A DNA stretch of 64,000 bases from Trachythela sp. YZ-2020 (lineage: Eukaryota; Cnidaria; Anthozoa; Malacalcyonacea; Clavulariidae): the NCBI GenBank assembly GCA_016169945.1, contig JADLSH010000395.1:7592001-7656000 (forward strand), written 5' to 3'. Below, one piece after another: positions 27,631 to 52,215 of the stretch. Numbering within the stretch: the stretch's first letter is position 1; each line of letters opens with the position of its first letter. The notes below the pieces were generated by a model. It was not told the origin of the DNA. It saw nothing but the letters and a program-made list of their open reading frames with translations, and did no database searches. A program made the position numbers and the translations under genes.

Positions 27631-27734
27631 GGTTATAAGGCCATGTTACAAGTCACGGAATATATTATAATAATTAAATAAATAGTTATATATTATAATA
27701 ATTAAGTAAGTAATTAATATCATTATAGGTAAAT
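27631..27734 (+). repeat. Distal terminal inverted repeat, left
   Basis: Unique AT-rich sequence of 104 bp running GGTTATAAGG to CATTATAGGTAAATG. The reverse complement of 52111-52215 matches it nearly throughout. Confidence 0.9.
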
Positions 27735-30700
27735 GTTCTGTAGTTCTGTTCTGTAGTTCTAGGGTTCTAGGGTTCTGTAGTTCTAGGGTTCTGTAGTTCT
27801 AGGGTTCTGTAGTTCTAGGGTTCTGTAGTTCTACGGTTCTGTAGTTCTAGGGTTCTGTAGTTCTAGGGTTCTGTAGTTCTAGGGTTCTGTAGTTCTAGGG
27901 TTCTGTAGTTCTAGGGTTCTGTGGTTCTAGGGTTCTGTGGTTCTGTAGTTCTAGGGTTCTGTAGTTCTACGGTTCTGTGGTTCTAGAGTTCTGTAGTTCT
28001 AGGGTTCTGTAGTTCTAGGGTTCTGTAGTTCTAGGGTTCTGTAGTTCTACGGTTCTGTAGTTCTAGGGTTCTGTAGTTCTAGGGTTCTGTAGTTCTTTTG
28101 TTCTGTGGTTCTGTAGTTCTAGGGTTCTGTAGTTCTACGGTTCTGTAGTTCTAGGGTTCTGTAGTTCTAGGGTTCTGTAGTTCTAGGGTTCTGTAGTTCT
28201 ACGGTTCTGTAGTTCTAGGGTTCTGTAGTTCTAGGGTTCTGTAGTTCTAGGGTTCTGCAGTTCTGCAGTTCTGCAGTTCTAGGGTTCTGTAGTTCTAGGG
28301 TTCTGTAGTTCTACGGTTCTGTAGTTCTACGGTTCTGTAGTTCTAGGGTTCTGTAGTTCTAGGGTTCTGTAGTTCTAGGGTTCTGTAGTTCTAGGGTTCT
28401 GTAGTTCTAGGGTTCTGTAGTTCTGTAGTTCTAGGGTTCTGTAGTTCTACGGTTCTGTGGTTCTAGAGTTCTGTAGTTCTAGGGTTCTGTAGTTCTAGGG
28501 TTCTGTAGTTCTAGGGTTCTGTAGTTCTAGGGTTCTGTAGTTCTAGGGTTCTGTAGTTCTAGGGTTCTGTAGTTCTAGGGTTCTGTATTTCTAGGGTTCT
28601 GTAGTTCTAGAGTTCTGTAGTTCTAGGGTTCTGTGGTTCTGTAGTTCTAGGGTTCTGTAGTTCTACGGTTCTGTGGTTCTAGAGTTCTGTAGTTCTAGGG
28701 TTCTGTAGTTCTAGGGTTCTGTAGTTCTAGGGTTCTGTAGTTCTGCACGGTTCTGTAGTTCTAGGGTTCTGTAGTTCTAGGGTTCTGTAGTTCTAGGGTT
28801 CTGTAGTTCTAGGTTCTGTAGTTCTAGGGTTCTGTAGTTCTAGGGTTCTGTAGTTCTAGGGTTCTGTGGTTCTGCAGTTCTGTAGTTCTGGGGTTCTGTA
28901 GTTCTACGGTTCTGTAGTTCTATGGTTCTGTGGTTCTAGGGTTCTGTAGTTCTAGGGTTCTGTAGTTCTAGGGTTCTGTGGTTCTGTGGTTCTGTAGTTC
29001 TAGGGTTCTGTAGTTCTACAGTTTCTGTAGTTCTAGGGTTCTGTAGTTCTAGGGTTCTGTAGTTCTAGGGTTCTGTAGTTCTACGGTTCTGTAGTTCTAG
29101 GGTTCTGTAGTTCTAGGGTTCTGTAGTTCTAGGGTTCTGTAGTTCTAGGGTTCTGTAGTTCTAGGGTTCTGTAGTTCTACGGTTCTGTAGTTCTAGGGTT
29201 CTGTAGTTCTAGGGTTCTGTAGTTCTAGGGTTCTGTAGTTCTACGGTTCTGCAGTTCTAGTGTTCTGTAGTTCTAGGGTTCTGTAGTTCTGTAGTTCTAC
29301 GGTTCTGTAGTTCTAGGGTTCTGTAGTTCTAGGGTTCTGTAGTTCTAGGGTTCTGTAGTTCTAGGGTTCTGTAGTTCTAGGGTTCTGTAGTTCTGTAGTT
29401 CTAGGGTTCTGTAGTTCTACGGTTCTGTTGTTCTAGAGTTCTGTAGTTCTAGGGTTCTGTAGTTCTAGGGTTCTGTAGTTCTAGGGTTCTGTAGTTCTAG
29501 GGTTCTGTAGTTCTAGGGTTCTGTAGTTCTAGGGTTCTGTAGTTCTAGGGTTCTGTATTTCTAGGGTTCTGTAGTTCTAGAGTTCTGTAGTTCTAGGGTT
29601 CTGTGGTTCTGTAGTTCTAGGGTTCTGTAGTTCTACGGTTCTGTGGTTCTAGAGTTCTGTAGTTCTAGGGTTCTGTAGTTCTAGGGTTCTGTAGTTCTAG
29701 GGTTCTGTAGTTCTACGGTTCTGTAGTTCTAGGGTTCTGTAGTTCTAGGGTTCTGTAGTTCTAGGGTTCTGTAGTTCTGGGGTTCTGTGGTTCTGGGGTT
29801 CTGAGGTTCTAGGGTTCTGTAGTTCTAGGGTTCTGTGGTTCTACAGTTCTGTAGTTCTGGGGTTCTGTAGTTCTACGGTTCTGTAGTTCTGTAGTTCTAT
29901 CGTTCTTTGGTTCTAGGGTTCTGTAGTTCTAGGGTTCTGTAGTTCTGTAGTTCTAGGGTTCTGTGGTTCTGTGGTTCTGTAGTTCTAGGGTTCTGTAGTT
30001 CTACGGTTCTGTAGTTCTAGGGTTCTGTAGTTCTAGGGTTCTGTAGTTCTAGGGTTCTGTAGTTCTACGGTTCTGTAGTTCTAGGGTTCTGTAGTTCTAG
30101 GGTTCTGTAGTTCTAGGGTTCTGTAGTTCTACGGTTCTGTAGTTCTAGGGTTCTGTAGTTCTAGGGTTCTGTAGTTCTACGGTTCTGTAGTTCTACGGTT
30201 CTGTAGTTCTAGGGTTCTGTAGTTCTAGGGTTCTGTAGTTCTAGGGTTCTGTAGTTCTAGGGTTCTGTAGTTCTAGGGTTCTGTAGTTCTAGGGTTCTGT
30301 AGTTCTAGGGTTCTGTAGTTCTAGGGTTCTGTAGTTCTAGGGTTCTGTAGTTCTAGGGTTCTGTGGTTCTGTAGGGTTCACAGGCCCTGTCGTTCTCGGG
30401 TTCTGTAGTTCTAGGGTTCTGTAGTTCTAGGGTTCTGTAGTTCTAGGGTTCTGTAGTTCTAGGGTTCTGTAGTTCTAGGGTTCTGTAGTTCTAGGGTTCT
30501 GTAGTTCTAGGGTTCTGTAGTTCTAGGGTTCTGTAGTTCTAGGGTTCTGTAGTTCTAGGGTTCTGTGGTTCTGTAGTTCTAGGGTTCTGTAGTTCTACGG
30601 TTCTGTGGTTCTAGAGTTCTGTAGTTCTAGGGTTCTGTAGTTCTACGGTTCTGTAGTTCTAGGGTTCTGTGGTTCTGGTTCTGTAGTTCTAGGGTTCTGT

Positions 30701-31670
30701 AGTTCTGTGGTTCTGTAGTTCTAGGTTCTGTAGTTCTACAGTTTCTGTAGTTCTAGGGTTCTGTAGTTCTAGGGTTCTGTAGTTCTAGGGTTCTGTAGTT
30801 CTAGGGTTCTGTAGTTCTAGGGTTCTGTAGTTCTAGGGTTCTGTGGAGTTCTAGGGTTCTGTAGTTCTAGGGTTCTGTAGTTCTAGGTTCTGTGGTTCTA
30901 GGGTTCTGTAGTTCTAGGGTTCTGTAGTTCTAGGGTTCTGTAGTTCTAGGGTTCTGTAGTTCTAGGGTTCTGTGGTTCTGTAGTTCTAGGGTTCTGTAGT
31001 TCTACGGTTCTGTGGTTCTAGAGTTCTGTAGTTCTAGGGTTCTGTAGTTCTAGGGTTCTGTAGTTCTAGGGTTCTGTAGTTCTAGGGTTCTGTAGTTCTC
31101 TGGTTCTAGGTTCTGTAGTTCTAGGGTTCTGTAGTTCTAGGGTTCTGTAGTTCTAGGGTTCTGTAGTTCTAGGGTTCTGTGGTTCTGTAGTTCTGTGGTT
31201 CTGTAGTTCTACAGTTCTGTGGTTCTAGAGTTCTGTAGTTCTAGGGTTCTGTAGTTCTGGGGTTCTGTAGTTCTAGGGTTCTGTAGTTCTAGGGTTCTGT
31301 AGTTCTAGGGTTCTGTAGTTCTAGGGTTCTGTAGTTCTAGGGTTCTGTAGTTCTAGGGTTCTGTAGTTCTAGGGTTCTGTAGTTCTAGGGTTCTGTAGTT
31401 CTAGGGTTCTGTAGTTCTAGGGTTCTGTAGTTCTAGGGTTCTGTAGTTCTAGGGTTCTGTAGTTCTAGGGTTCTGTGGTTCTAGGGTTCTGTAGTTCTGT
31501 AGTTCTAGGGTTCTGTAGTTCTAGGGTTCTGTAGTTCTAGGGTTCTGTAGTTCTGTAGTTCTAGGGTTCTGTAGTTCTGTAGTTCTAGGGTTCTGTGTAA
31601 AGCAATCTAGGGTTCTGTAGTTCTAGTTTCTATAGTTCTCTAGGGTTATAGGTAGTTATAGTTCTACTTC
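27735..31670 (+). repeat. 16-bp minisatellite array, left arm
   Basis: About 3.9 kb of TAGGGTTCTGTAGTTC units with variants (TACGG, TGG, TAGAG) and some 8-bp half units, since the unit is itself two related octamers (TAGGGTTC and TGTAGTTC). A foreign-looking break lies at about 30371-30400. A longer pattern recurs after 970 bp (see findings). The last ~70 bp are degenerate. It is not a CRISPR array: there are no unique spacers. Confidence 0.95.
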
Positions 31671-32186
31671 TATGATTTAACTATGACTTTAACAGACTCA
31701 GCTTTTTAGTGCTTTCCCAATATACACTTAAGCTTATTTAACTCAATAAGACCTAAAAAGAGTTTTTAATCTCGGCAGAGACCTTTGCTTTGCCCACTAA
31801 TACTATTTAAGACATTTCATATATTTTTTATTTTTCAATACTTTTAATGTTTCAATTGGGAATCCGTGGACAACAAAAATATTAAAGTAAAAACAAGATA
31901 CAAATGAAGAATCCTAAAACATTCATATATTTTCCTTCACCTAAACCTCAAATGTTTTCATTGTCACGCCAAAGAATGTCCACGCTTTCGATCTGATCTC
32001 TGTTTGGTCCATATATAATCATATGTAATAAGTGTCTATATTAACAATATGAAGTGTAATTTAAATGTAACCAAATTGAATGTAAACATTAGTAATTATA
32101 TATTGTGCTATGTTCGATAGTCTTTTGGTAATATTGGAGGAAAAGATAAGAAGCCGTGTTGTAAAACAGTTTTTAACGTATTGAAA
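31671..32186. other. Noncoding, 3' side of the transposase gene
   Basis: AT-rich sequence between the array and the stop codon at 32187; holds the presumed 3' end of the minus-strand gene. Nothing else seen. Confidence 0.45.
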
Positions 32187-35100
32187 TTACTTCAATTTCC
32201 CTATGCTTTTCATTACTTTTTCTAAAGTTTTTTTAAATATTGGAAGAACAGATAAAAAGTCATGTTCTAAGATTAGTTCGATTAAGTTATTATACGTTTT
32301 CCAAATTTCTTTTTCGTCATCATCGGTATTCTTCTGCCCCTTTTCTTTAAGTGCCGCACAAATTACAACGAGTAGTATAAATTCCAGACGATTGAAAGAT
32401 TCGTCAATTGTTAATTTTGTTCGTTGCTCATAAAAAATGCGAGACGTCTTTAATGGTGACGATTCCAATGTTTGTCTCTTTCGTTTTGTCGACATACGCT
32501 TTCCCCTCGGTTGTTCGCCTATTTTTCTGCAACTACGACTGTTTCCACATTGACCTTTGCACTTACATTTATCCGAGCAACGTCCGTACAATGGTATGCA
32601 TTTGCACCGGCTTTTGTAAGCGTTTTTACCATTTCCCCCCGATTTTTTATTTATTCCGCAACGGCACCCTCTATTTTTTTGGCCGATTGCGACGTTTGCT
32701 TCATTAAGCTGGCTCTCTTTGACGTCAGCGTTATCGTTTTGGTGTGGTTCGGTTCTCTGAACTAGTGCGTCATAATGACCTGGTCCTGCATGGTTGTACG
32801 CAAGCAATATTGCCTCGCCATTTCCAACAGACGAGCGCGGATATATCTCCATGAAAGGAACTAGATTTCGAGTGGACAGAATAAGCAAAGGAAGTTGCAG
32901 GACGTTGGCCAAGCCAAGTGGCATCAGATCTCCAACATTAGACGCAAATACGCCAGAAATTAGAAAGTTGTTTGCTTGTTCTAAAAAGGTCACATCATCG
33001 TCGACGCAGGGGTGGTATTCGTCCATAAACGGACCAGTCCACTCTGCAACTATATGTTGTCGTAAAATTTGACTAATTTCCGACAGTGAACGTTCAGGTT
33101 GATTCTAAATATGTCAAATGTTCTCTCACTTGGGGCTGCAAGTCAAACGTGGTAATCAACTGCAAAAGTTGAAAAGCAACGGAGGAAAAGAAACAGTCGC
33201 CATCACCCATAATTCTAACAATATCTAAACCCCACTGGGTTGCAACTGTATTTATTTCGTCTTGAACAGTTTCTTCAGAACTATCTTGTAAAGACTTGGT
33301 TGTAAACATGAATTGACTTTTCGTTTCTGTCACTATAGTTTTTCGATAAGTGCTTTTTCGCCTCCCGACTATTTTCCGATGGACTCCGATGACCTCCACA
33401 ATGACAACCCTTGCTTTAAGTAATTTAATAAATCCCAAAGTTCCTTGTCCAATCTTTCCATGTAGTCATGTTCCGACATGGGCCAATTTTCTTCAATACT
33501 ATTCTGTATTGCAGTTATGCCGTTCAACATTTTGTCAATTTCTTCCCTTGAAAAATCATCAAGGCCTTTTACTTTTCGCGTTTTCAAATTCATCGTCAGC
33601 GTCAAAGTATTCCAGGCGTTGCTCAACTCCGAAGTGTTCCAATTCGTTCTCCAATACAGTGTTCGTTGATTCCTCTCTCAATGTCTGCGTCTTTATTTCA
33701 TGCAATGATGGTAAATCTTTCTCGCTATTTTCAGCTAATTGGTATAGTATTCTAAACATCTTTGTATACAGCAAGGGTAGTCCTATGCGATTGGTGGTTA
33801 TGATTTTGTTCAGTTCTCTATGAAGTCTCTCATTTCTGTTAGTCCCACATCCCGTTGGTATATCAGATAAACACCCTCTACGAATGTGATACTTGATGTT
33901 TTCTATTTCCTTTAGTATTTCTTTTGTTAAAACATTAGTTCCCATTTGGTTTTTTATGTGTTGCCATTTCAGACAAAACTTTTCAAGATTCTTTAAAATA
34001 ACCTCTGGAGGGCGATGGTAAAGTTCTTTTTGTCCAATGTCTCCAGGTTGACGGAAAACTAACCCGTATTCTTTGGCCATGACGGATGAATATTTCGAAC
34101 GTTTTGGTATTTTACGAACTGCTCTTTGAACAGCATGAAAAGGTCTAATTTGATGGGAACATTGGGAAAGTATTTGCTTAAAAACTGTGTCCACTTACAG
34201 CAGTTATCGAGAAAGATCCTTCTAACACAGTGTTTTGCCTTTTGAATCGTTCAGAAAGTTGCCGAAATACATTTTCTAGTTCAGAAACACTTTCTGTTTT
34301 AGTAAACCTCCACTGAATTACCGTGCCTTTTCATTTAGAACGCAAAATAAGCTATGGAATAATTTTACCCATTTATTATCACTTTTCGCAAATAGCCAAT
34401 ATTCGAAGTAGCTTTAAACGTGTGATCGCAACTTATCCACTTTGCAGAAAGTTTTGAAAAATACTGTCGATAGAAGATTTCATCGTGTTTAAACCTTGAA
34501 ATTATAGCACCTGTGATCAGTTTATTTCCAGGGCACGGTATATCCATTTGCTCAAATGTTGGAAAATTGAGCATCCTCATCGTTCAAGTCCAACCCGATT
34601 TGTTTCGCAACATTGAGATCATGATAATAACGTCGAGGCCGTTCATAATACGTTTTCTTGTAACAGCGTTGCACGATGGTACAAATCTGATTCGCACTTA
34701 GACCTGTGTCGATTAACTCTTCCAAATAGTCAATTAGTCTATTTGTGAATCCCGACTTGTGGCTAAGTGTAAATGGGACAGCAGAAGTCTTGATTTGCTG
34801 TAGAATGTCTACATCTACTCCATTTATGTCATGGTGACCAAGATTACAGGAGTATTGTTTATTTACGAGCATCACTGGCGATGAAATATCAAATATGATA
34901 CGAGGATGAAGTCGTTGCAATCGTCCATTTTTCCAATTTTTTGTATTAACTAGATAACCAAGCATATCCTCAATTTTACATTTAGGGCAAATTATCTTCC
35001 CTCTCATCAAGGCATTAAACTGACATAAAGGATCAAAAATAATGTATGGAAGAACGCAATATGAATTCGGATCATTTTTCCACGATTCGTCAACACTAGG

Positions 35101-35291
35101 AACAGATTGTACAAAATTTCAGGCGGGTCTATGTGATGCTCAGCGTCGTACTTCAAATCCGCAGCTTCTGTCGAAGATTTGATACATTTTACGGCGTATT
35201 CATTGATTTCATAACTAAAAGTTGACATACATCCAAATATTGATAGGATAATCAAATTGAACAAAAGATTAAATCTACAATATGTCGTCAT
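32187..35291 (-). pseudogene. DDE transposase with OTU protease and CXC domain (frameshifted)
   Basis: Read on the minus strand in successive frames. An N-terminal block (about 35200-34560) has DPPEILYNLFLV, IICPKCK with a second cysteine pair, and NQICTIVQRC. The core has WISCDHTFKATSNIGY (about 34410-34440), DNCCKWTQFLS with KLDLF/HAVQR (about 34130-34200) and GCGTNRNERLHRELNK (about 33835-33850). I take these as the D, D and E regions of an RNase H-fold transposase. An OTU-like domain follows, with GDGDCFFSS (Asp and Cys) near 33205 and GPGHYDALV (His) near 32770. Then comes a CXC/tesmin-like cluster (GCRCG, SRCKC, DKCKCKGQC; about 32530-32680), a basic KRKR signal and a helical tail. Frameshifts fall near 35060, 34300, 34150, 33580, 33430 and 33105. 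Start uncertain; 35291 is one option. OTU enzymes cleave ubiquitin chains; CXC motifs bind zinc and DNA. Confidence 0.7.
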
Positions 35292-35399
35292 TTTGGTGAA
35301 GCTTCGAATAACAGTTACATAAGAATGATTTTTCGTGAAAGTTTTTTGTATTTTATGCGAGGAACCGCCGACGAGTGTGTTTGTGGCGCAACGCAAACC

Positions 35400-35806
35400 A
35401 TATTCAGTTACCGCGACAACTGTTCATTTGATGGCAATATGGCATGAGGGAACAGACGGAGTACGAACCCAATCAAAAAGTCTTCCTTTACTATCGGCAA
35501 TCGATTTTTATCAGACTCTGCGTTTTCCACTTTATGGGAATATGAAGGTGGAAAAGACGCAGTCTGGTAGAAAACGAATGTTAAGCTTTCAGGAACACTT
35601 TTCATGACAGACTCCGTCGCCTATAAAGTTGAAAAGACGGAGTCTGATAAGAAATGATTGCCTATCATAAAGAACTACTTGATAATAGATCCGGTACTCC
35701 TCACTCCGTCTTTTTTAACTATGGTCTTTTCCACTGTGTTGCCGCCTAGCTGCTACCCCGAGAACGAGGTTATACACACCCTACCGGAAGCTCATTATAA
35801 ATTCTG
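35400..35806. promoter_or_regulatory. Divergent intergenic region with repeated AGACTCCGTC motifs
   Basis: Between the two divergent genes the motif AGACGGAGTC/GACTCCGTC and close variants occur at least six times in both orientations (near 35454, 35515, 35556, 35612, 35632, 35705). Some pair as hairpins, e.g. ACAGACTCCGTC with GACGGAGTCTG. Clustered inverted motifs between divergent promoters could be binding sites for an element-encoded protein; this is inference. Confidence 0.45.
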
Positions 35807-35917: not shown

Positions 35918-35922
35918 GTAAG

Positions 35923-37474
35923 TGTTCAATTACTATTGTTTTATTTTGATACTTTTATCACTGTGTAACTTTATAGTGAAATGATACGATAATGTATTGA
36001 GTGGCCATAAAACGCCGCGGAAGAATTTTTAAAGGCCACGCTACTATATTTTGTTTGCTTTAATTTTGGTAAGATTTGCTAAGATTTGCTGAACGCATGG
36101 ATAATGTGGACGATAAAGTACTTAATATTTTCGGATAACACCTTTTGTTTTTTCCATGTTGGAAAAAATCGGCGAAGTATCAACTTCTCGTAAACCTGGC
36201 TATTCACGTGGGAATTTTTCATTATTCATTGTATTCATTATTAATATTTTCTTCAGTGAGTTATATAAACAGTCAAACGTCGACATAATTTTAATATCAT
36301 CATTCTCAGCTATTTGCCTTTGATGCTGGTACACTAGCCTGTGAAGCTCGTTTCTAGCTTGATCAACGTACTGTAGTAACTGTACATACGAAATTGAATT
36401 TTTTCAATGTGTTTGGCGAAGTTGTTACTCTGGCACATTGCACTTATTTTGTCAATGAAACTGGTAGAATCAATCATCTCTGACGAGATAAAGCAAAAAA
36501 GTGAAATGAGAAAATAAAATATTTTTTCAATGAAAAAACACGCGGGTTCTTTTGGCAAAGGCTACTTAAAAGCAGCTTGTTGTATTAATTGGGAAACTGG
36601 CTGTTTATGAAACTTTGATACTCGCATTTGCTCTGTAACGTTCGTACGAATGCGATAGAAATTGATGAATTTGTCTGTGATTTATATACCGTGATTTATA
36701 TACGCCTATACTATACTGAGTTTTATCGTAATATTTAGACGTTTGAACATAGTTTTGACGTCTGCGACGTATGTTATCAGGCGTTGCCGGTCACTATGTT
36801 GTCAAAGCGTTTTATTCAAACTTTCAAAAAAACAAAACAATTATTCCATATAAGGTTATGAAAATGCCCGACTATTCTTAGGATTTCGCTTACGTAAAAA
36901 ATGATATCAGTGCTATTTAATAATGTTCTGACAAAATCTATAAAACTAAAAGGCTTTGGCAAGATAGTGACAACGCCCCTGACAACATGGCTCGCGTTTA
37001 CGTCAGAACTAATAGCATTTGCGAGCTACTGTGAAGCATTCATTTATAACAAGTTTCAAAACGTTTCTTTCGGCAGAGTTTGCCGTTCACTCAAAACTTT
37101 TTGTTTGGCACTCAAAACGTTTTGTTTAAAACGCGTTTGTTTCAGTGGTTTGTTTACGTTTGAAACGTCAAGTTGGGCGAATCAAACATTCTAATTATAA
37201 TGCGCAATGTTTTATAGGTTTTGACCGTGACATTGACATGTTTGACAGTAGAAACTTGCATGTTTTACAAACTTGAGTGATTGTTTTAAAACAAATTTCG
37301 TACGTTTTATGCGAGCGGCGATGTCTGCCTAAGTGCGAAAATTTTATACGGACATGAGTACGAGAGATGCAAAATTACTAGAATTACTGTTAACGAGTTC
37401 AATCTATTAAATTTGAAAAAGCTGGATAGCCTATACGACTGGCACGAGATTTTCCAACAGGAGTTAGGACATCA
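35923..37474. other. Noncoding region of the giant element
   Basis: Probably first-intron sequence of the plus-strand gene. Several CAAAACGTTT-type motifs occur in both orientations around 37060-37180. No coding sequence is supported. Confidence 0.4.
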
Positions 37475-37801
37475 TCAACTCGCAGGCATAATCTGGTTGA
37501 AGTCCCCCGCATTTTGTACCGGTGTGGCGGCAAGAACAGCGTCTTTTACATCACTTTCATTTGACATTGTGACAAACGTCCCTTCGTCGTCCCTGTAATG
37601 CATCCGTAGTTCTACGTATTTAAGGGACCGGTCATAAAGTATGTGTACTGGTGGGGGTGGAGGGTAATCAAAAATTCTACCATAAAATTTGGCACCCCCC
37701 AAAAAGCGTCGGAAATATTTAAGTTCAGTTTCTGTCCATGCACGAGATCTTTTAGCATGCTTTTTCACAGTGTTTGAAGTGTTTCTTTCACCTTCCGCCA
37801 T
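37475..37801 (-). CDS. Small PB1-like domain protein
   Basis: The ATG at 37801 has a strong context (AAAATGGCGGA) and opens a frame of about 108 codons. It starts MAEGERNTSNTVKKHAKRSR. After a basic stretch and a run of five prolines, the C-terminal half reads YVELRMHYRDDEGTFVTMSNESD followed by VKDAVLAA. Acidic DDEG followed by VTMSNESDVKDA resembles the OPCA motif of PB1 domains, which mediate protein-protein dimerisation. It lies in the presumed first intron of the plus-strand gene, on the other strand, between the two main genes. It may be a single-exon gene, one exon of a longer gene, or a host-derived fragment. The domain call rests on one motif. Confidence 0.4.
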   Translation of the reverse strand: MAEGERNTSNTVKKHAKRSRAWTETELKYFRRFLGGAKFYGRIFDYPPPPPVHILYDRSLKYVELRMHYRDDEGTFVTMSNESDVKDAVLAATPVQNAGDFNQIMPAS

Positions 37802-37885
37802 TTTGAGTATCACAATTTGTATTCTTTCGTGAAACCGCTGTCTATCTGTAGCACGGTCCCGTATTTCTTGACTAGTGCGTCCTTG

Positions 37886-38085
37886 CCCGTCTTTATGCTG
37901 CAGACGAATTATCCATCAAGACGAATTAACTCAGTAAGTTCGTCTCATGTGACGAACTTACTGACGAAGTTCGTGCAGACGTATAATACGTCTTGTGCCC
38001 GTCTTTATACTACAGACGCACTTAACGACGAACTAAAAATCTTCGCCTAAGTTCGTCCAGACGGATAATTCGTCTTAAGCATAAA
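37886..38085. repeat. Hairpin-rich CGTCT/GTTCGTC repeat element
   Basis: TGCCCGTCTTTATRCTRCAGACG occurs at about 37886 and 37993. A perfect 13-bp stem (CAGTAAGTTCGTC ... GACGAACTTACTG, about 37931-37962) and many GACGAA/TTCGTC motifs surround it. It looks like a small palindromic MITE just upstream of the main plus-strand coding exon. Confidence 0.6.
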
Positions 38086-39078
38086 AACGGCCAATGTCTA
38101 ATAAGCATTACAATCTAAATCTCAAAGTCATTCACGAGTCACGAGATAGATTTCTGATGCGATGCTTTGATATTTCTCTTAATTTGTATATGCAGTTCTA
38201 TCTCTGTTCAATACGTAGTGAATCCATTATCCATGGCATAAAGTATTTGAATTTTCTTTTGACCGCTAGAACGATGAATTCAAAAAACACATCCTTATTT
38301 TTTAACTCGATACCTGATGAACAGTTAACTGAAATTATGAAACAAGCGCGTAGCAAGGATTTTCCTTTGTCGGCGTTTCCCAAACATGTGGTGGAATGGG
38401 TGGAGGCGATGGCTTATTCGGTAAACACCAAACCCGAGTTTGTACTGATCGCAGCGATGTCGGTTGTATCAACGTTGATGGGACCAAAAACCAAATTGAG
38501 TATCCGGCCAACTTACGCCGAACCATGTAATTTGTTCACAGTATGCCTAAGTGAACCGGGGGCGGGAAAGTCTCAAGCATTCGAACTGGCCGTAGAAAAA
38601 CCCGTACGAAATCTTACAGATCCGCTAGCACAGTCAGTGGTTGTGAACGATTTCACACGGAAAGGACTATTCCAACATCTTGTGGCGCACAAGGGAAGGG
38701 CTTTGCTGGCCCACTCGAAATGAGCTCATTCTATGAGCTCATTTTAAAAACAACACGAAGGTTCAGGAGAAAGACAACTGTTCTGTCGGTTATACGATGG
38801 TATTGCAGAGTGGACTTTGACAACCGCGGGGAACGCAACTGTAAGCAAAGACAACACCACCAAGAGGAATGCAGGAAGTTCTTTCAGAGAACGCGTTGGC
38901 ACTCGGTGGGTTCACACAGCCAGAACCATTTTACAACTCTTTAAGCCATTGGCGAAAACTAAAGATGGTTTCCTTGATCGCATTTTGATGTGCTCCATCA
39001 AACCGCACTTAAAACATGAAGAAGAAGTGGAAAATTACTGTGACATTCTTGGTCTATATCAGACTCGAGACTTCACCG

Positions 39079-39528
39079 GTAACTGTATAATTTGTTTACA
39101 ACTGCAGAATTTTCCCCACTTCCGCTTTGTATTTGTCAGTTCTTATTTTATACTCGGTCTACTAGGTCATAGGGCCTGTTTATATTATCCCACTTTATAT
39201 ACTGAGACGTTTCGCTTGCGTGCATGTGTTTATAATATATTTACGTGTGTTCATATTGTCTTGCTTATATAGAAATTTTCACCGCTTGCCAATATGAAAT
39301 TGCACTAATAGCGCTTCAAAACTGTACATTTCATGCACGCAATTTACAAAATATTAATTTGACGAATATTTAATTAACGATTTTGTACTTGAATTTTTTG
39401 CAATAATTTGACTTTTCTAGCGACATATTTTATGCTTGTTTGTAAATAAAATAAACGTAAAACTACTTAAAATCGTCAACTGACGGAACACTCAATTATG
39501 TACATTTATTCATTTGATTATTTAAACT
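39079..39528. other. Intron 1 of the ATPase coding region, left part
   Basis: Begins at the GTAACT donor. AT-rich, no coding sequence. Ends at the target duplication of the hAT-like insertion. Confidence 0.5.
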
Positions 39529-42361
39529 CAGAGGAGGTATCGTCAGTATACCACAATGCATTGCGGTTTTGGACACATTGATACATATTATCAATTCGCC
39601 GGCGCGTCTCGCTCATTGTTCGGTTGCCTTTCGCTGTAAACACATCTCTCTGAATCTCTCTTCCGTAACATTGTTATAGAAAAATGGCGCATTTTCGCTC
39701 TATTCGTGGCAATAAAGCTTCAGTTTTGGAAGCACGAGATGTTTGCCGAATGCAAAAGCCCAGCATTGATAGAGATGCATTCTAGTTGTGTTTTTAAGGT
39801 GAGTTTTTTACTCCAAATTACTAGGTTATATTGAAATTATAGATATTCGAGAGGACTTTGTAGAAACCTGAACTGTAATCTATTATATAAAGCCGGTCTA
39901 TATTGTTTAAAAGATAACAAATTTCCTATGATAGTGAGTCATTGACTTCTGACAATGCATCTGTAAAAGATGTATTAATATTTACGACTTCAAATCCTGA
40001 TTAAGCTGGAGAATCATGACTCTATAGAAATTAATTTTGTATGCACTATAACTCACTCTGTAGAAGCTTTGTTATATTTAAAACTGATTTATTATTATTA
40101 CATCTTGTAGTTCTTTGACTTTGATGATAACCGGCAAGTATCAGTCCAAAACCTGATATTGTGGGAATTTGATATTTTGCCATCGACTTGAACACTCAAG
40201 ATCCTGACACAGTGATTGAAGAGCTGGATGCTGTACTCCCACCACTGAATTCCATGTAATTGCTACTATCAACATATGAATCCTGTCTGCTTGGTAGATT
40301 TTCGAACTCACCAGAGAGTCGACAGAAGATGGTGATAAGGTTGTTGGTGGTAACTGTTATTGGTTATTGTGGGGTACACAAAATCCCCAACTTAATAGAG
40401 CTCTGATCAGAAATGAAATACAATCAATTTCTCCTGATAGTTTAAAGAGAATATATGCTTATATGGAAAAAGCATTACTTTACCATGGGACAGAGATGAT
40501 CCAAGCAATAATTATAACAGTGACAATAAATTGCTAATAAAAGCTTGGTCAATGAAAATTATTTAATGTGTGGCTCCAGTGTATGCAGTGATAAACAATA
40601 TACTTGAGGGATTATAGGATCAAACTACTGTAACTAACAAATACAACCAGAACTTTGAAGGACACCTTCATCTGGAAGTTATAAATGCAAGCCAAAGAAA
40701 CTTACAACTAAAACACTGCCTAAAGTACTAAAATATAATACTACTATACTAAAGAATAATTAAAAACACTATCATTGGTTGATAGGGACTTCAGAGTTAT
40801 AGGACTAGATATTAGATGATTTTACTGTCTGAGCTTAGGTAATTCTACCCATGTGCTATTTTTGTCACTTCACAAATACTGTAGAATGATAATATATATA
40901 GTGATCTAATGGTATATGATGAGGGTGCATTGGAATTCAGTTCTGGCTGGTACCCTCATTTTTTTATCTGACCCTGTGATTTAAAGTATATGCCTGCCTG
41001 ATACGACATCAGGCAAATTAACTGAGACATAACCATAAATGGTTAAATATATAACTCAGTCCAACCAGATACAGTTCTGGTGCACTTCTGGCATAACATA
41101 AGTTATTGGTTATAAGCAGAATACAGACACAGTCAAATTCATATTGAAAATCATTTATTCTTTTTCAAAAAAATCACCTGAAATTAAAGAAAAAGCATAT
41201 TATTTTTTTAAATGTTGCTATATGGTTAGAAAAGCAGGAAATAGTGCTTTTAATGGGCTTACCCCAACCTAATCATACTGTATAAAATATTGAACAAATT
41301 GGGAGTTGCTTCGTGTGTGCCCAAAAGATATAAACAAAATCTCTGACGTTCTCCTGACGAAGGGCTTTAGCTCGAAACGTCGAGATTTTGTTTATATCTT
41401 TGCACACATGGCTAACCTCAATTTGTTCTATATATCTGTGGCCGACGCTGAATTAAAGTCTGTATAAAATATTGTCTAGAGTCATAAAATTATTTATACT
41501 TCTAGAATTTCAATATTTACATGTTAATTAATTAACTTATGAGTATTTACAATAAACTTAAACCCTAAATTTTCCTGTTAATATGTCAATCGGATAAACT
41601 AAGATGATAGTTCATAATCTACACTTATGGTACAATTTGAAACAGTTAATATGAAACTGATGAAATATTGATAAAGTTTAAAACATGCATTATAATTACA
41701 TGACAACATCGTCATTATTAGATTCCGTTTACTCCAAATTCCAAAATACTTGAACTCTATAATAAAATGGAAAAATACAGTCATATATAACCATACCTAA
41801 CTTAAAGGTAACATTGAACTCAAAACAAGCAGCAATATTTAGCATAATAGTTTATATTCATACAGTAATTTTCGTCGCGCCATAATTATTCCCACGCTGT
41901 CTATTCCGCCATCGGGGTTAGAATATCGCAAAAATACCCCATCTTCAAACCGCGATTACTCATCGGTTTTGAGGAGCAAATTCATGTTTTAAAGTATCAA
42001 TAGAAAGAGTAAACATTCCTGAATTGGCTGATGTGATTTTTCAGTTTCCTCATTAAAAGTACAATTTGCTCCTGGCATATTTCAAAGCCACTTTTGTGGC
42101 GTGTCCACTGACCGGAACATGCATAAATACAATGCGTGATTAGTATAACTAAAATCCTATAAATATACGAAACAAGTCAGAAATACTTTAATTAGATAAC
42201 TAAACAAAACAATCGTAAAACATACCTTCGAAAAAACGAGATCTTCAGAGCCAAAAATGGCAATATATTTCAACAATTTTTGCCAAACGTTCCTCGAAAA
42301 TCGCAATTGTGAATACTAATGAGGCGCAATGCATTGCGGGAAGACCACGATTCCTCCTCTG
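39529..42361. mobile_element. Non-autonomous hAT-like transposon, 2.8 kb, in an intron
   Basis: The ends are inverted: CAGAGGAGGTATCGT on the left and CAGAGGAGGAATCGT on the right, both followed about 20-30 bp inward by CAATGCATTGCG. ATTTAAACT flanks both sides (39520-39528 and 42362-42370); hAT elements duplicate 8 bp and start CAGNGG, so TTTAAACT fits with one chance base. The 2.8-kb body has no transposase frame. It contains a Penelope-type hammerhead segment at 41330-41450. Confidence 0.85.
41330..41455 (+). ncRNA. Hammerhead-type ribozyme motif from a Penelope-like element end
   Basis: CTGACGA (41354-41360), a short GGGCTTTAGCTC stem-loop and GAAAC (41374-41378) form the conserved hammerhead core. 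AGATATAAACAAAATCT and its inverted copy flank it. The same sequence ends the Penelope-like element at 53.5 kb, and hammerhead motifs are established features of such elements. This is a solo remnant. Confidence 0.55.
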
Positions 42362-44108
42362 ATTTAAACTTTTCCGTGCATGCACGTGCGTACGAAAAAC
42401 GAATGAATGTATTAAGGAGTTATGCGAAAATCCGAAATTTGATTTCTTGCCTTCTTCCGGATATTCATTTACTTTTCTTTTCTTCAAAGACTACATTTAA
42501 TGCACTCACATATATTTATGGAACATGCATGATTAGTTTCAATTGCTAGCATGAAGCGTGTCATCATTTGTATGTTAAACGTTGACAAACATTCAATTTA
42601 TTTTTTACAGCTATATACGATACAATTTTCGAAATGCATAGAGAAGGCCGAGTATATTTACTCATCCGAAGCAAAAGGAGCCTACATAAAATACTCAAAT
42701 GAAATCACAGACCAAATGAATAAACAATGGGAGCAGGAAACGATCTCAAGTTCAAATCTTTCAAAAGATAGAAGAAATCTGAATAGGTAAACGATGATTT
42801 TTTGGCCTATGCATAAAAATATATAATATCATGTAGTATTCTAAAAATTCGACACTTCCTAATATAAATAACCCGCGAAAAGAAGGGAGGTCTCGAGGTA
42901 AATAAGGAATTGGACAATAAAAAGCGCACAAAATGCATGACTTTAATATCATTAAAATCTCTTGTCTCTTGGGAGCAAAAGCGAAATAGCAATATGCAAA
43001 TTAGGTAAAGGCGTAAATTAAGCATGCAAAAGCTGATTTTTTTTAAAAATGAAAGTTTGCGCGACGTTTTGAAGGGCTTACACTTTATAAGCAAATTTTC
43101 TGAAATTTTGAACAGCAATGCAACACCCAACAAATTTTCCACCACTAACTCAAAATAACTTTTAAGCATTCAAATTTCGTGCAAGCCATTTTTGATCTGT
43201 TTGACAAGACACCCTGGGTTTTGAAAATTTAACTTTCGGAATTTTTTCGTTTATTCTACATTATAAATACCCAAACAATCTATATTAATCAAAAACGTCG
43301 TACATGGAGCCATGTTTAGCGATTTTAACGAGTAACTTTGTCCGTTTTAGACTGTCTGGTGTTTTGCACGTGCTTCTCAACGTTGTAGAACACTTTGTTG
43401 GTCACGAAGTCGAATTGGATGGTGAATTAATAAACTCAAATAGTGACATAGTACCACTGGAAATATCAGTAGAAACGATGGAAATTGCCCAAAAATTGGT
43501 TAATTATTTCTCTGAACAAAGAGAAATATTTTTAATGGTAACGTGCGTGAATACCACTATACCAGTTAGAATTACAATAGAGGCGGGCATGAAGAGTCAA
43601 TCTGCATTTTTTGGTTTAGCAGTTGATATTTTTAGCATACAAAAGTCTATTTGAACTCGTTGACCAAACACAAACACCATGGTTAAAACATATTGGTGTT
43701 GTCCTTCAGTTGGGATTTTAAAAAACGATGAAACTATACTTTAGCGTTAAGACTACAGGCGTTAGACCAAGTAGTATTCATAAGTGTCAGCATTTTAATT
43801 GACAGGTCCTCAATCCACGACCGACGAAAAAACAACTTATAACAAAAATAAAGACGAACGAGTCTCAAGCAGAAGAATTATCGATCGACCAGGCAACGAA
43901 GATCTTAAATACATTTGGTCAGTGGCTGATAGGGAAAGCGCAGTGCCTCACGGCTGATGAAGTAAGAACATGTTTTCTAGACTTTTGTCGCATAAAATTT
44001 GTGTGAACTCCTCAAAAAAACCTCTTAGCTTGCCGAATTTTATAATTTTCATCCATGGTGACTGAGCATTATCAATAAATTCTTAGTAAATAAATCTTAT
44101 TATTCAAT

Positions 44109-44446: not shown

Positions 44447-45247
44447 AAGGACTAATTAAATTGCTATATATATTGCAAAAGTGACAGTTTTATAGTTTAA
44501 CTTTGTATTATCTCCTAATTTGTTCTATCCCTTGTCTTTGCCTTGCCTTGCTATTATTACATAGGCTACGCCTTATAAAACGGATATTGTCTGCAAGTGT
44601 TCTTCGTTGCTCTTTCAGATTAGAAAGATCGCAACAGAGAAGAAGCCAAGGGATAGCGCTGAAACATTATTATCGTACCGTGGAGAGGAAGAGGGCGACG
44701 AAGCAGTGTATTCCACATTCCGCAAAAGTATATTATCAAAAGCTGCAGTAAAAGTGGGGGGAGAAGGAAACGGCACCGCCTATTTTGTGCAGGATGATGA
44801 CCAGAAAGTCAAAAAGAAATGTATAAGCATACCCTTTAATGTGTTTAACCCAACGATAAAGGAAAAACTTGTCCAAGGTATAAATCTGTATATCAAATTT
44901 CTTCTACAGCCTTTTATATCGGGACTATTTGAGCAAAAAATGTTGGGTTACTGATTTTCACCCAGAATAAAGTAACATTGCAAAAGTGAGTTTATATGCT
45001 CACAATGGCCTAAACAATTCTGATAAAGTACACCGATCAAAAATATGTTCTCTATATAAGACAACAATCTAATACATGTCCACGCATTATCACGTATTGT
45101 CACGGTTGAAAAACCCATATCCAAAATGATAATCACATCACGAGGCAATTATACCGCAGCACGCTGGAAATAACGTCCCGCTTCAGCTGAAAGAACGACA
45201 TTATTACCGTTATAACCATCGTCATTTTGGGGGTCAAAATATACTAA

Positions 45248-45316
45248 TGGAACAGTATAAGGAACAAGCATTGGAACAGTATAAGGAACAAGCATTGGGG
45301 GGGGGGGGGGGAGGGG
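45248..45316. repeat. Short tandem repeat with G-tract
   Basis: GGAACAGTATAAGGAACAAG followed by CATT occurs twice in tandem, then a run of about 15 G. It is intronic. Confidence 0.8.
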
Positions 45317-46388
45317 GTGTCCTGGTATTATACATATATATATTTATATTGGTTTTGCAAGTTGCATGTAAACCGGAATTGTCAGCATTCGTATTTGGTT
45401 GAAAGTTTCTGATCATAAATTACTTAATTCACGTCAGTTTTCATGGCTACTGTATGTTAATAAAAAATACATGTATGTATGCTTTGGTGTTAATATTAAG
45501 GACTTATGATTGTATTATTTTTCATTTAGCTGTCAGTCGAAATTCACGGAAACGGAATAATCCCGAAATTGCAACTTCTGATGAACATCAACCAAAGGTT
45601 CCACGGCAATTAGGTAGAACGCTATGTATTAAGTAATAAACGTTTTCATTCATACTATACAGTGTTGTAGTTGTTTGTGGGGTTTTCCGTTGTTCTTATC
45701 TATTTTCAAACAGCATTAGGCCATAAAAAATTATGTTTCTGGTCAGTGGGTTTGTGCAGAATTGATGTGGCGACGCGGCTTTTTATTTCCTTTTTTCTTA
45801 AGAGTTAATAAGGACATGCTTTTTTTGGAGAAATGGGTTATTTTTTATGCTTTTAATACTAAACTGTCACCAAATTTGCAGGTTTAATAGAATAAACTGG
45901 TCAGCGATTTTATTTAAGAGTACTTCATTTTGCAAGGATATTGATGGACCGTATTTGCAAAAAAAAACGTTGACGCGCACAGTTAAAAATGACGCGCGCG
46001 CTGACCAGAAACATAACTTTTTTTTTCTTGGCCTTAATACAAATGTACATTACCATTGGAATTTTTTAATTAATCTATTGTATAGAAACTACAGTGTTAT
46101 CGGAGGAAACGGATGATATTGGTAACGTCAATCAAATTATTACGGTCCCAGATGAACCTGCTGATGACTTAAAGGACACAACATTGCCGCCAGTCGACGA
46201 TGGAAAAATCGACGATCCAGGTAATATGTAGATCATGCATTCAATTTAGATATTTGTAGGCCAATTTAACTTTTGTGATAGTAACTGTTTTGGATATAAC
46301 TTTTGGATAACTGTTGTAAAATATACGTAGCAATTAACATACCAACATATAACTAAAATCTTCGCATGTGTCTTTTTCATGATTATAG

Positions 46389-46939
46389 AGTCGTGGATGC
46401 GTCTCTTAAACTTGAATGACCATGATAAGCATATTCTTTCATCAGAAGAAATGCTTAATGATAAACATATAAATGCTGCCCAAAAACTTCTTGTTGAAGA
46501 GTTTCCTTCGATCTGTGGATTTCAAAATCCGTTACTATCACAAACGAACGCGTTTAGTCCAATTCAACCCAAAGCAAAATCCATCCACATACATCATGTC
46601 CGCACCAACCACTGGATACTATCCACGACAATAAAAAGTGTTGTTGAAGTGTTCGACAGTATTTATAGCAATCTAAGCCCTGATACGAAATCCCAGCTTT
46701 CCACGATATATCAGACCTTTGCAAACAATGGTGATCTAGACGTCAAGATTGTCCCTACCCAACATCAGACTAGCTCCGTGGATTGTGGACTATTTGCAAT
46801 TGCATGGGCATACGAGTTAGCCAATGGACACAGACCTGAACATGTTACGTTTGAACAGTCTAAGATGCGATCGCATCTCTTGGCGTGCTTTAAAAAACAG
46901 AAGATTAGTCGCTTTCCAGCAACAGACTATGAAAGCTAA
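46389..46939 (+). CDS. Ulp1/SENP-like C48 cysteine protease exon (3' exon of the ATPase gene)
   Basis: This intact terminal exon encodes about 183 residues. After WMRLLNLNDHDKHIL and EMLNDKHINAAQKLL it shows the catalytic His in RTNHWILS, an Asp in VEVFDSIYS, and a Gln-x-x-x-Cys region in QTSSVDCGLFAIAWA. These are the His-Asp-Cys elements of the Ulp1 fold, in order and spaced as in C48 peptidases. Members remove SUMO-like modifiers; transposon-borne copies may act on modified host or element proteins. It joins the upstream exon at phase 1 (DDP-G/ES) after the TTATAG acceptor. It is the best preserved part of the gene, with no stop or shift before 46939. The upstream exons show it is a C-terminal domain, not a separate gene. 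Confidence 0.8.
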
Positions 46940-48314
46940 TTTATTCTTAATGAAGTTTAAACTGAACAATCTTGGAAGGACGCTTTCTATTTTGCATAAA
47001 TTTGATTAATATAGTTGATTCAAACTAATTGTTGTGTTCTAACTACAAATAATGAGTGACTATATCTTATTAAGATATTATTTTCCAGAAAACCCTAAAC
47101 AGAAAAGAGAGCTGAAAAATCTTACCGATGCTTTGTCATGCATGGATAAACCAACTGGGAACCAAAGGGCACGTCGACGTTAAAATATCCACAAGTACTA
47201 TGGCCGACAAATTTATATTGGGTTACTTCTATTTCTTAATGACATTTCGTTGTGTTATATATTGTTACTATGTACGAGACTTATTATACGAGAGTTTTAT
47301 TAAGAACTCGGTATTATTCATATTCGACTATTATATATATTACTACTGATATAATGTAGTTTATATACAACATCGTCAATGTTTAAGCTAAAGAATACTT
47401 GTAATACTTTTATGATTAAATTGTTTGATTTGTATGACGTTTCGTTTTTCTGCACGTGTGTGTTCTTGTGCACTTGGCACGCCTTGCGCGGTCACTTGCT
47501 ATAGCAATCAATTCTATGACTCAGCGTATACGGCCGCTTCTCGTGTACCGCATTCTGGTATAATATATATCCGAAACAGGTGCAGTATACGATGCAGTGC
47601 ATATACATAATCTTTAAGAGGAGCCAATTTCACTACACACGGTACATGCCCCCCCCCCCTCCCCACTATATTTTGTAGTATTGCTATGTTAGGTTGAAGG
47701 AGGTTTCAGGCTTTTATATTGGGTGGAATAGCTAGTATGTATCGTATCATGCCATGACACCAATTTTGCAACCCGTCCAAGTTTATATGGAAATTGGGTT
47801 AAATGTACTTCAATACTTTCACAAGAATTGAAAGAGAAAACTACTTATCATTCTCTAAAATCGAATAATTTTAGTCCTCTATAATCAAGATTTCGTTTCA
47901 TATAAAAATTAGTGAACAGGAGGCACAAGCCTTGGTATAGTCGGGGAAATGACAAGAATGTTCTTTTTCATTAATTTTGTTCATTTTCCTCATTGTTAAT
48001 AATTTTTACAGTAAACGAAATGTCTATCCATATATAGCCTGCGTGGCCGGCCCTCCCTGTTCTTCTTTTCCCCTCCAACGAGGGCCGGCCACGCAGGCTA
48101 ATCCATATAGTGACATCAAATCATGACTCACGAGTTTTAGAGCAAATAGTTAGCCATATATGCATTTGCTTTGCAAATTCTTTCTAAAAGTCTCAAGACA
48201 TGTTGAGCCTAATCAGCATAACTTGACCAAGTCACAATATTGCATGGTGTCGCCATCTTAAGTGGTTCATTTTCATAGAAGGCAAATGATTAGTTATTAA
48301 CTATTAGTTATTAA
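46940..48314. other. Noncoding, 3' side of the plus-strand gene
   Basis: Holds the presumed 3' end of the ATPase-Ulp1 gene, a C-tract at about 47648-47664 and the small MITE at 48035. Short frames here show no domain. Confidence 0.45.
48035..48100. mobile_element. 66-bp MITE with 21-bp terminal repeats and 9-bp target duplication
   Basis: A perfect inverted repeat of 21 bp, TAGCCTGCGTGGCCGGCCCT then C, surrounds a 24-bp loop. ATCCATATA is repeated at 48026-48034 and 48101-48109. The TAGCCTG end and 9-bp duplication match the element at 13724-15023. Confidence 0.9.
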
Positions 48315-51300
48315 GAACTACAGAACCCAAGAACTACAGAACCCTAGAACCACAGAACCCTAGAACTACAGAACCCTAGAACTACAGAACCCTAGAACAA
48401 CAGAACCCTAGAACTACAGAACCCTAGAACTACAGAACCCTAGAACTACAGAACACTAGAACTACAGAACTACAGAACCCTAGAACTACAGAACCCTAGA
48501 ACTACAGAACCCTAGAACTACAGAACCCTAGAACTACAGAACCACAGAACTACAGAACCCTAGAACCACAGAACCCTAGAACTACAGAACCCTAGAACTA
48601 CAGAACCCTAGAACTACAGAACCCTAGAACTACAGAACCCTAGAACTACAGAACCCTAGAACTACAGAACCCTAGAACTGCAGAACCCTAGAACTACAGA
48701 ACCCTAGAACTACAGAACCTAGAACTACAGAACCCTGAACTACAGAACCCTAGAACTACAGAACCTAGAACTACAGAACCCTAGAACTACAGAACCCTAG
48801 AACTACAGAACCCTAGAACTACAGAACCCTAGAACTACAGAACCCTAGAACTACAGAACCCTAGAACTACAGAACCCTAGAACTACAGAACCCTAGAACT
48901 ACAGAACCCTAGAACTACAGAACCCTAGAACTACAGAACCCTAGAACTACAGAACCCTAGAACTACAGAACCCTAGAACTACAGAACCCTAGAACTACAG
49001 AACCACAGAACCTAGAACCACAGAACCCTAGAACTACAGAACCCTAGAACTACAGAACCCTAGAACTACAGAACCCTAGAACTACAGAACCCTAGAACTA
49101 CAGAACCCTAGAACTACAGAACCCTAGAACTACAGAACCGTAGAACTACAGAACCCTAGAACTACAGAACCCTAGAACTTCAGAACCCCAGAACTACAGA
49201 ACCACAGAACCCTAGAACTACAGAACCCAAGAACTACAGAACCCGAGAACTACAGAACCAGAACTACAGAACCGTAGAACTACAGAACCCTAGAACTACA
49301 GAACCCTAGAACTACAGAACCGTAGAACTACAGAACCCTAGAACTACAGAACCCTAGAACTACAGAACCCTAGAACTACAGAACCCTAGAACTACAGAAC
49401 CCTAGAACTAGAACTACAGAACACTAGAACTACAGAACCCTAGAACTACAGAACCCTAGAACTACAGAACCCTAGAACTACAGAACCCTAGAACTACAGA
49501 ACCCTAGAACTACAGAACCCTAGAACTACAGAACCCTAGAACTACAGAACCCTAGAACTACAGAACCCTAGAACTACAGAACCCTAGAACTACAGAACTA
49601 CAGAACCCTAGAACCACAGAACCCTAGAACTACAGAACCCTAGAACTACAGAACCCTAGAACTACAGAACCCTAGAACTACAGAACTCTAGAACCACAGA
49701 ACCGTAGAACTACAGAACCCTAGAACTACAGAACCCTAGAACTACAGAACTCTAGAACTACAGAACTCTAGAACCACAGAACCGTAGAACTACAGAACCC
49801 TAGAACTACAGAACCACAGAACCGTAGAACTACAGAACCCTAGAACTACAGAACCCTAGAACTACAGAACCGTAGAACTACAGAACCCTAGAACTACAGA
49901 ACCCTAGAACTACAGAACCCTAGAACTACAGAACCCTAGAACTACAGAACCCTAGAACTACAGAACCCTAGAACTACAGAACCCTAGAACTACAGAACCC
50001 TAGAACTACAGAACCCTAGAACTACAGAACCCTAGAACTACAGAACCCTAGAACTACAGAACCCTAGAACTACAGAACCCTAGAACTACAGAACCCCAGA
50101 ACTACAGAACCACAGAACCCTAGAACTACAGAACCCTAGAACTACAGAACCCTAGAACTACAGAACCACAGAACCGTAGAACTACAGAACCACAGAACCC
50201 TAGAACTACAGAACCCTAGAACTACAGAACCCTAGAACTACAGAACCCTAGAACTACAGAACTCTAGAACTACAGAACCCTAGAACTACAGAACCCTAGA
50301 ACTACAGAACCACAGAACCCTAGAACTACAGAACCCTAGAACTACAGAACCCTAGAACTACAGAACCCTAGAACTACAGAACCCTAGAACTACAGAACCC
50401 TAGAACTACAGAACCCTAGAACTACAGAACCGTAGAACTACAGAACCCTAGAACTACAGAACCCTAGAACTACAGAACCCTAGAACTACAGAACCCTAGA
50501 ACTACAGAACCCTAGAACTACAGAACCCTAGAACTACAGAACTACAGAACCCTAGAACTACAGAACCCTAGAACTACAGAACCCTAGAACTACAGAACCG
50601 TAGAACTACAGAACCCTAGAACTACAGAACCCTAGAACTACAGAACCCTAGAACTACAGAACCTAGAACTACAGAACCCTAGAACTACAGAACCCTAGAA
50701 CTACAGAACCCTAGAACTAGAACTACAGAACCCTAGAACTACAGAACCCTAGAACTACAGAACCCTAGAACTACAGAACAGAACCCTAGAACTACAGAAC
50801 CCTAGAACTACAGAACCCTAGAACTACAGAACTCTAGAACTACAGAACCCTAGAACTACAGAACCCTAGAACTACAGAACCCTAGAACTACAGAACCCTA
50901 GAACTACAGAACTCTAGAACTACAGAACCCTAGAACTACAGAACCCTAGAACTACAGAACCGTAGAACTACAGAACCCTAGAACTACAGAACCCTAGAAC
51001 TACAGAACCGTAGAACTACAGAACCCTAGAACTACAGAACCCTAGAACTACAGAACCCTAGAACTACAGAACCCTAGAACTACAGAACCCTAGAACTACA
51101 GAACCCTAGAACTACAGAACCCTAGAACTACAGAACCCTAGAACTACAGAACCCTAGAACTACAGAACTACAGAACCCTAGAACTACAGAACCCTAGAAC
51201 TACAGAACCCTAGAACTACAGAACTCTAGAACTACAGAACTCTAGAACCACAGAACCGTAGAACTACAGAACCCTAGAACTACAGAACCACAGAACTACA

Positions 51301-52110
51301 GAACTACAGAACCCTAGAACTACAGAACCCTAGAACTACAGAACCCTAGAACTACAGAACCCTAGAACTACAGAACCCTAGAACTACAGAACCCTAGAAC
51401 TACAGAACCCTAGAACTACAGAACCCTAGAACCCTAGAACTACAGAACCCTAGAACTACAGAACCCTAGAACTACAGAACCCTAGAACTACAGAACCCTA
51501 GAACTACAGAACCCTAGAACTACAGAACCCTAGAACTACAGAACCCTAGAACTACAGAACCCTAGAACTACAGAACCCTAGAACTACAGAACCCTAGAAC
51601 TACAGAACCCTAGAACTACAGAACCCTAGAACTGCAGAACCCTAGAACTACAGAACCCTAGAACTACAGAACCCTAGAACTACAGAACCCTAGAACTACA
51701 GAACCTAGAACTACAGAACCCTAGAACTACAGAACCCTAGAACTACAGAACCCTAGAACTACAGAACCACAGAACCGTAGAACTACAGAACCCTAGAACT
51801 ACAGAACCCTAGAACTACAGAACCGTAGAACCACAGAACCGTAGAACTACAGAACCCTAGAACTACAGAACCCTAGAACTACAGAACCGTAGAACTACAG
51901 AACCCTAGAACTACAGAACCCTAGAACTACAGAACCCTAGAACTACAGAACCCTAGAACTACAGAACCCTAGAACTACAGAACCCTAGAACTACAGAACC
52001 ACAGAACCCTAGAACCACAGAACCCTAGAACTACAGAACCCTAGAACTACAGAACCCTAGAACTACAGAACCCTAGAACTACAGAACTACAGAACCCTAG
52101 AACTACAGAA
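48315..52110 (-). repeat. 16-bp minisatellite array, right arm
   Basis: About 3.8 kb of GAACTACAGAACCCTA units, the reverse complement of the left array, with the same kinds of variants (AACCGTAG, AACCACAG, AACTCTAG). It ends where the unique distal repeat begins. Confidence 0.95.
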
Positions 52111-52215
52111 CATTTACGTATAATGATATTAATTACTTACTTAATTATTATAATATATAGCTATTTATTTAATTATTATAATATATTCGGTGACTTGTAA
52201 CATGGCCTTATAACC
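52111..52215 (-). repeat. Distal terminal inverted repeat, right
   Basis: Reverse complement of 27631-27734 with a few substitutions. It ends at CCTTATAACC (52215), after which sequence unrelated to the left flank begins. Confidence 0.9.

What the first reader, a model, noticed from the sequence alone, without database searches (positions are those of the whole stretch)
27631..52215. A 24.6-kb giant transposon with two protease-bearing genes
Matching inverted ends enclose a DDE transposase fused to OTU and CXC domains, and a divergent P-loop ATPase fused to a Ulp1 protease. An element carrying its own deubiquitinase-like and deSUMOylase-like domains plus a replication-type ATPase is unusual. 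It suggests a large element that manages host modification systems and perhaps replicates its DNA. I cannot exclude that the family is already catalogued.
Basis: partly seen in the sequence, partly recalled or inferred. Interest (0 to 1): 0.92.

Follow-up and report, generated by a model that had tools for sequence, protein, structure and literature searches.

The report
Giant transposon with helicase and proteases
A 24.6-kb stretch with matching inverted ends holds genes, two of them frameshifted, for a predicted DNA-joining enzyme with a deubiquitinase-like part, a phage-helicase-like ATPase and a predicted SUMO-protease-like protein; it is likely one giant jumping gene that would help copy its own DNA, although no second copy could be checked.

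The parts
27631..27735 (+). left terminal inverted repeat, 105 bp, begins GGTTATAAGG
   Evidence: 102/105 identical to the right end
27736..31639 (+). left satellite array, ~480 units of 8 bp (GTTCTGTA / GTTCTAGG)
32187..35291 (-). transposase gene region, frameshifted; closest relative Dendronephthya gigantea LOC114544301 (P0001)
   Evidence: 627/994 aligned codons identical, 9 frameshifts, no in-frame stop
35220..35291 (-). hydrophobic, signal-peptide-like N-terminus of the transposase (extent approximate)
34740..35100 (-). cysteine-containing N-terminal domain, weakly DUF6729-like (extent approximate)
   Evidence: E 0.022, below Pfam's cut-off
33720..34568 (-). DDE catalytic domain, D..D..E with DxxH (extent approximate)
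32745..33285 (-). OTU cysteine-protease domain (extent approximate)
32520..32670 (-). CXC domain, MSL2/tesmin type (extent approximate)
   Evidence: relatives and profile; cysteine pattern seen in the window
37475..37801 (-). small ORF with a partial PB1-like domain, possible extra gene
   Evidence: E 5e-4, below Pfam's cut-off
37883..38094 (.). nested palindrome between the two divergent genes
   Evidence: z -10.2
38274..39078 (+). ATPase gene, exon 1 (P-loop, DUF3987), frameshifted
42611..42786 (+). ATPase gene, internal exon
43351..43537 (+). ATPase gene, internal exon
43806..43961 (+). ATPase gene, internal exon
44619..44877 (+). ATPase gene, internal exon (start by inspection; one search proposed 44624)
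45530..45613 (+). possible ATPase internal exon (splice sites only, no homology evidence)
46086..46220 (+). possible ATPase acidic exon (splice sites only); its donor fits either 3' end in phase
46389..46939 (+). Ulp1/SENP-like protease: alternative terminal exon or separate gene
47089..47183 (+). ATPase terminal exon conserved with P0017
   Evidence: score 68, maximum of 50 control windows 37
48314..52110 (-). right satellite array, ~476 units of 8 bp, inverted
52111..52215 (-). right terminal inverted repeat, 105 bp

Best explanation
The 24,585 bp between matching 105-bp inverted ends are likely one giant DNA transposon, in which a predicted IS256/Mutator-type transposase with OTU and CXC domains would cut and join the ends while a phage-helicase-like DUF3987 ATPase would help to copy the element. 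Shown: the ends, the satellite arrays, the gene order and the sequence matches. Predicted from structure models of relatives or of the window's own ORF: the IS256-like DDE fold, the OTU fold and, with low confidence, the SENP-like fold. Inferred: the hundreds of 8-bp units in each end act as binding sites that load many transposase molecules, as repeats in Galileo's ends do; transposition is copy-out/paste-in, as in IS256, with the ATPase unwinding the copied strand; OTU and Ulp1 remove ubiquitin and SUMO from the transposase or from repair proteins at the broken ends. The Ulp1 domain is probably an alternative last exon of the ATPase gene, or a separate gene.
Confidence: 0.55

Rival explanations
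1. A cut-and-paste Foldback-type Mutator-like element in which the ATPase and Ulp1 genes are captured passengers with no part in transposition.
For: Foldback-type ends house Mutator-type transposases elsewhere (Tm1, PMC3169594, passages); Ulp1 is known in Mutator elements (PMC2836005, passages). Three of nine Ulp1 relatives bear a PHD finger instead of an ATPase, so the domain occurs in other settings; that search could list only proteins of about 100-320 aa, so longer fusions would be missed. ATPase exon 1 has the higher density of frameshifts (4 in 250 codons against 9 in 994).
Against: The ATPase keeps its P-loop (seen in the sequence), no stop codon in exon 1, and a 51% relative in the octocoral that also holds the transposase relative.
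Confidence: 0.3
2. A mosaic: two inverted copies of a satellite-bearing repeat flank unrelated genes, so there is no 24.6-kb mobile unit.
For: No target-site duplication; the arrays could recombine between elements; the two gene relatives are not on one contig in Dendronephthya.
Against: The only two matches of the 105-bp end in the window (BLASTN, E up to 1e-4) are exactly these, inverted; one gene inside is itself a transposase.
Confidence: 0.12
3. The remains of a virus-like element (Polinton, adintovirus or similar).
For: Size in the Polinton range (15-25 kb; PMC6431247, passage) and a cysteine protease.
Confidence: 0.03

Closest known systems
Mutator-like elements (MULE/MuDR) and bacterial IS256
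   Same: DDE domain with the predicted ISCth4 fold and a DxxH motif; Ulp1 domains occur in Mutator elements of hydra, lancelet and plants (PMC2836005, passage)
   Different: Weak to the MULE Pfam model; no target-site duplication here; OTU and CXC domains, a DUF3987 ATPase, 24.6 kb
Foldback-type elements: Tm1 (Mutator/Phantom-like), Galileo (P superfamily)
   Same: Long composite inverted ends with tandem repeats (PMC3169594, passages; PMC3688188, abstract)
   Different: Arrays of ~480 units and ~3.8-3.9 kb per end; multigene interior
Ginger1
   Same: Transposase with a C-terminal OTU or Ulp1 domain, many in Hydra (PMC2836005, passages)
   Different: Ginger1's DDE is the Gypsy-integrase type; 2.6-7.1 kb in its table; OTU in some families and Ulp1 in others; no ATPase listed
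Uncharacterised octocoral proteins LOC114544301 and LOC114544164 (Dendronephthya gigantea)
   Same: 57% and 51% identity to the two genes
   Different: Named only as uncharacterised; on different contigs; no element described in what I saw
DUF3987 helicase/primase proteins of phages
   Same: Profile matches of P0017 to PHROG DNA helicase and primase families
   Different: Apparently intron-containing gene inside a DDE transposon
Polinton/Maverick
   Same: Giant DDE element with replication-type and protease genes
   Different: No polymerase or capsid match in the ORFs scanned; DDE and protease models of other types

Membership tests
IS256/Mutator superfamily | RNase-H-like DDE domain of the IS256 type | tested here: met
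IS256/Mutator superfamily | C/DxxH motif between second D and E | tested here: met
   D388xxH391 in 16 of 16; the motif is shared with hAT, P, Kolobok and Dada (PMC9587614, passage), so not exclusive
IS256/Mutator superfamily | Pfam MULE model above cut-off | tested here: not met
   2 of 16 members match at E up to 0.1, best E 0.039; P0001 scores 14.8 bits against a cut-off of 27.6; hence 'like', not 'member'
IS256/Mutator superfamily | 8-11 bp target-site duplication | tested here: not met
   none at this single copy
Foldback-type transposon (structural class) | long inverted ends made of tandem repeats | tested here: met
Ginger1 | Gypsy-integrase-type DDE with GPY/F motif | tested here: inconclusive
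   no integrase model among the 13 Pfam families matched by the 16 members; not tested structurally one by one
Ginger1 | C-terminal OTU or Ulp1 domain | tested here: met
   OTU
Polinton/Maverick | DNA polymerase B and capsid genes | tested here: inconclusive
   no such match in the ORFs scanned, which are only part of the 104 ORFs; split exons could escape
DUF3987 (PF13148) | Pfam score above cut-off | tested here: met
   47.3 bits for the ORF of exon 1, 86.7 for the read-through; cut-off 27
Ulp1/SENP (C48) protease | His-Asp-Gln-Cys site in the SENP fold | tested here: inconclusive
   motif order seen in the sequence (motif recalled); best fold matches SENP5/SENP2 but model pLDDT 50, and Pfam gave only a sub-cut-off YopJ match (E 0.0036)

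The most novel reading that the evidence does not exclude
An animal DDE transposon of the IS256/Mutator type that brings its own phage-type replicative helicase, loads its transposase through kilobase satellite ends, and moves by copy-out/paste-in through a replicated circle, with built-in deubiquitinase and deSUMOylase steering host repair: a self-assisted replicative DDE transposon, a strategy that I do not know for eukaryotic TIR elements outside Polintons.
Probability: 0.25. Interest if true: 0.88.

Novelty: new variant of a known kind. Interest (0 to 1): 0.62.

Why it matters
If the unit is real, it joins in one eukaryotic element parts so far known to me only separately: an IS256-like transposase, a deubiquitinase domain, a predicted deSUMOylase, a phage-type helicase and giant satellite ends. 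It would make testable whether eukaryotic DDE transposons can replicate through element-encoded helicases, and whether OTU/Ulp1 domains act on transposition itself, a suggestion made for Ginger (PMC2836005, passage). It also offers a route by which transposons seed satellite DNA.

Tried and rejected
Other copies in the own genome: the genome search was called 20 times with the same query, some after pauses; did not complete. Scans of viral contigs with the transposase alignment, P0017 and a 26-base end pattern, and of genome contigs with P0017, gave nothing; these collections are viral and prokaryotic, so this says nothing about animals.

Array collinearity: a first shuffle control (20 shuffles, maximum 298 against 389) suggested that the two arrays carry unit variants in the same order, but rotated arrays score alike (1 of 46 rotations reaches the real score, mean 356 against 389). 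I do not claim collinearity.

Target-site duplication, also shifted or inexact: best 8-mer 6 of 8 matches, reached by 769 of 1000 random pairs.

Fold families absent from the VIA list (hAT, P, RAG, integrases) are not excluded; one domain fills the list. The viral library gave OTU-type names among its better matches, no transposase. KDZ/Zisupton was considered from memory only. A coral MITE paper (PMC2872659, abstract and passages) and KolobokP (PMC9587614, abstract and passages) describe different elements. Rfam: no match in 27000-53000. Ten further ORFs: no Pfam match at E 0.05. NCBIfam: no match for four proteins. Solved structures by sequence: nothing for P0017 or convincing for Ulp1. The protein searches are capped by length: relatives of 0.55-1.75 times the query only, and for the ATPase only the 7993 candidates sharing most words were scored. 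Not in print: ten paper searches over open-licence PMC only, judged by their listings; Repbase and Dfam were not available.

Full report
What is there. GGTTATAAGGCC... starts at 27631 on the plus strand and at 52215 on the minus strand, with 102 of 105 bases identical. After 105 bp both ends run into a satellite of 8-bp units, mostly GTTCTGTA and GTTCTAGG (377 of 480 units at the left and 408 of 476 at the right), over ~3.9 and ~3.8 kb, in inverted orientation. These account for nearly a third of the element. The two main units occur once in the remaining 56,002 bases examined. No duplication flanks the ends, and no shifted or inexact one exceeds chance.

A strange N-terminus. In 8 of the 16 relatives (P0001-P0005, P0007-P0009) the first ~47 residues carry a hydrophobic stretch, signal-peptide-like to the eye, stronger than any stretch after residue 48; in the window one later stretch is stronger. 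Of 242 internal stretches starting with Met, 10 are as hydrophobic as the weakest of the eight. The other 8 relatives start later or are truncated and lack it; the eight were picked because they reach that far. No signal-peptide predictor was available. A secretory signal on a DNA transposase would be unexplained.

ATPase gene. On the plus strand the DUF3987 match is E 2e-12 for the ORF of exon 1 and 2e-24 for the read-through. P0017 (D. gigantea LOC114544164), the only hit of that search, is 51% identical and matches PHROG families of phage DNA helicase (E 3.9e-17) and DNA primase (E 7.4e-12). All 15 proposed splice sites have GT or AG within 6 bases, which is a weak test; two exons (45530-45613, 46086-46220) rest on splice sites alone.

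Between the genes. The divergent intergenic stretch 37883-38094 is a nested palindrome (z -10.2 against 200 shuffles for 37880-38095; arms). It may be an inserted short foldback repeat or a regulatory or origin-like site.

How it likely works (inferred). The ends' repeats would bind many transposase molecules; for Galileo, multiple binding sites of the transposase's THAP domain were found in its repetitive ends (PMC3688188, abstract). An IS256-type reaction would join one end to the other on one strand, and replication would release a circle that is pasted in (ISCth4, PMC7780238, abstract and passages). The helicase-like ATPase would serve that replication. OTU and Ulp1 would strip ubiquitin and SUMO from the complex or from repair proteins, an idea already raised for Ginger (PMC2836005, passage). 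The chief rival is cut-and-paste with passenger genes; the higher frameshift density of ATPase exon 1 is a point for it.

Compared with the known. OTU or Ulp1 domains in transposases, and Foldback-type ends on Mutator-like elements, are in print (PMC2836005, passages; PMC3169594, passages). None of the listings of ten paper searches, limited to open-licence PMC, showed an element joining these with a DUF3987 ATPase. Repbase and Dfam were not available, so the family may already be catalogued there.

Limits. No second copy could be examined (20 unanswered attempts). The two Dendronephthya proteins lie on different contigs, which proves neither linkage nor separation, since satellite ends may break assemblies.

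Noticed in passing
35220-35291 (minus) and relatives P0001-P0005, P0007-P0009: Signal-peptide-like hydrophobic N-terminus on a DNA transposase, recurring among relatives that are 28-36% identical to P0001 (P0002: 68%).
   Followed up: partly
37883-38094: 212-bp nested palindrome (z -10.2) exactly between the two divergent genes; inserted foldback repeat or cruciform regulatory or origin site.
   Followed up: partly
37475-37801 (minus): Small ORF with a partial PB1-like domain (E 5e-4, below Pfam cut-off), upstream of the transposase on the same strand; possible extra gene.
   Followed up: partly
36203-36476 (minus): Two overlapping short ORFs that together could encode a ~95-aa protein; no Pfam match.
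   Followed up: partly
39079-42610: A 3.5-kb presumed ATPase intron, longer than the others; it holds a palindromic short repeat near 41320-41410 (by eye) and may contain nested insertions.
   Followed up: no
52870-53496: Tandem repeats of 100-283 bp just outside the right end of the element.
   Followed up: no
2715-3536, 17674-18744; also 11011-12853, 18850-19452: Reverse-transcriptase ORFs left of the element (RVT_1 above cut-off in the first two); the others look like RT and endonuclease ORFs by eye or by sub-cut-off matches.
   Followed up: no
P0021, P0023, P0026: Relatives of the Ulp1 domain carry a PHD finger, a pairing also shown for Ginger1 and Mutator transposases (PMC2836005, figure legend).
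   Followed up: no
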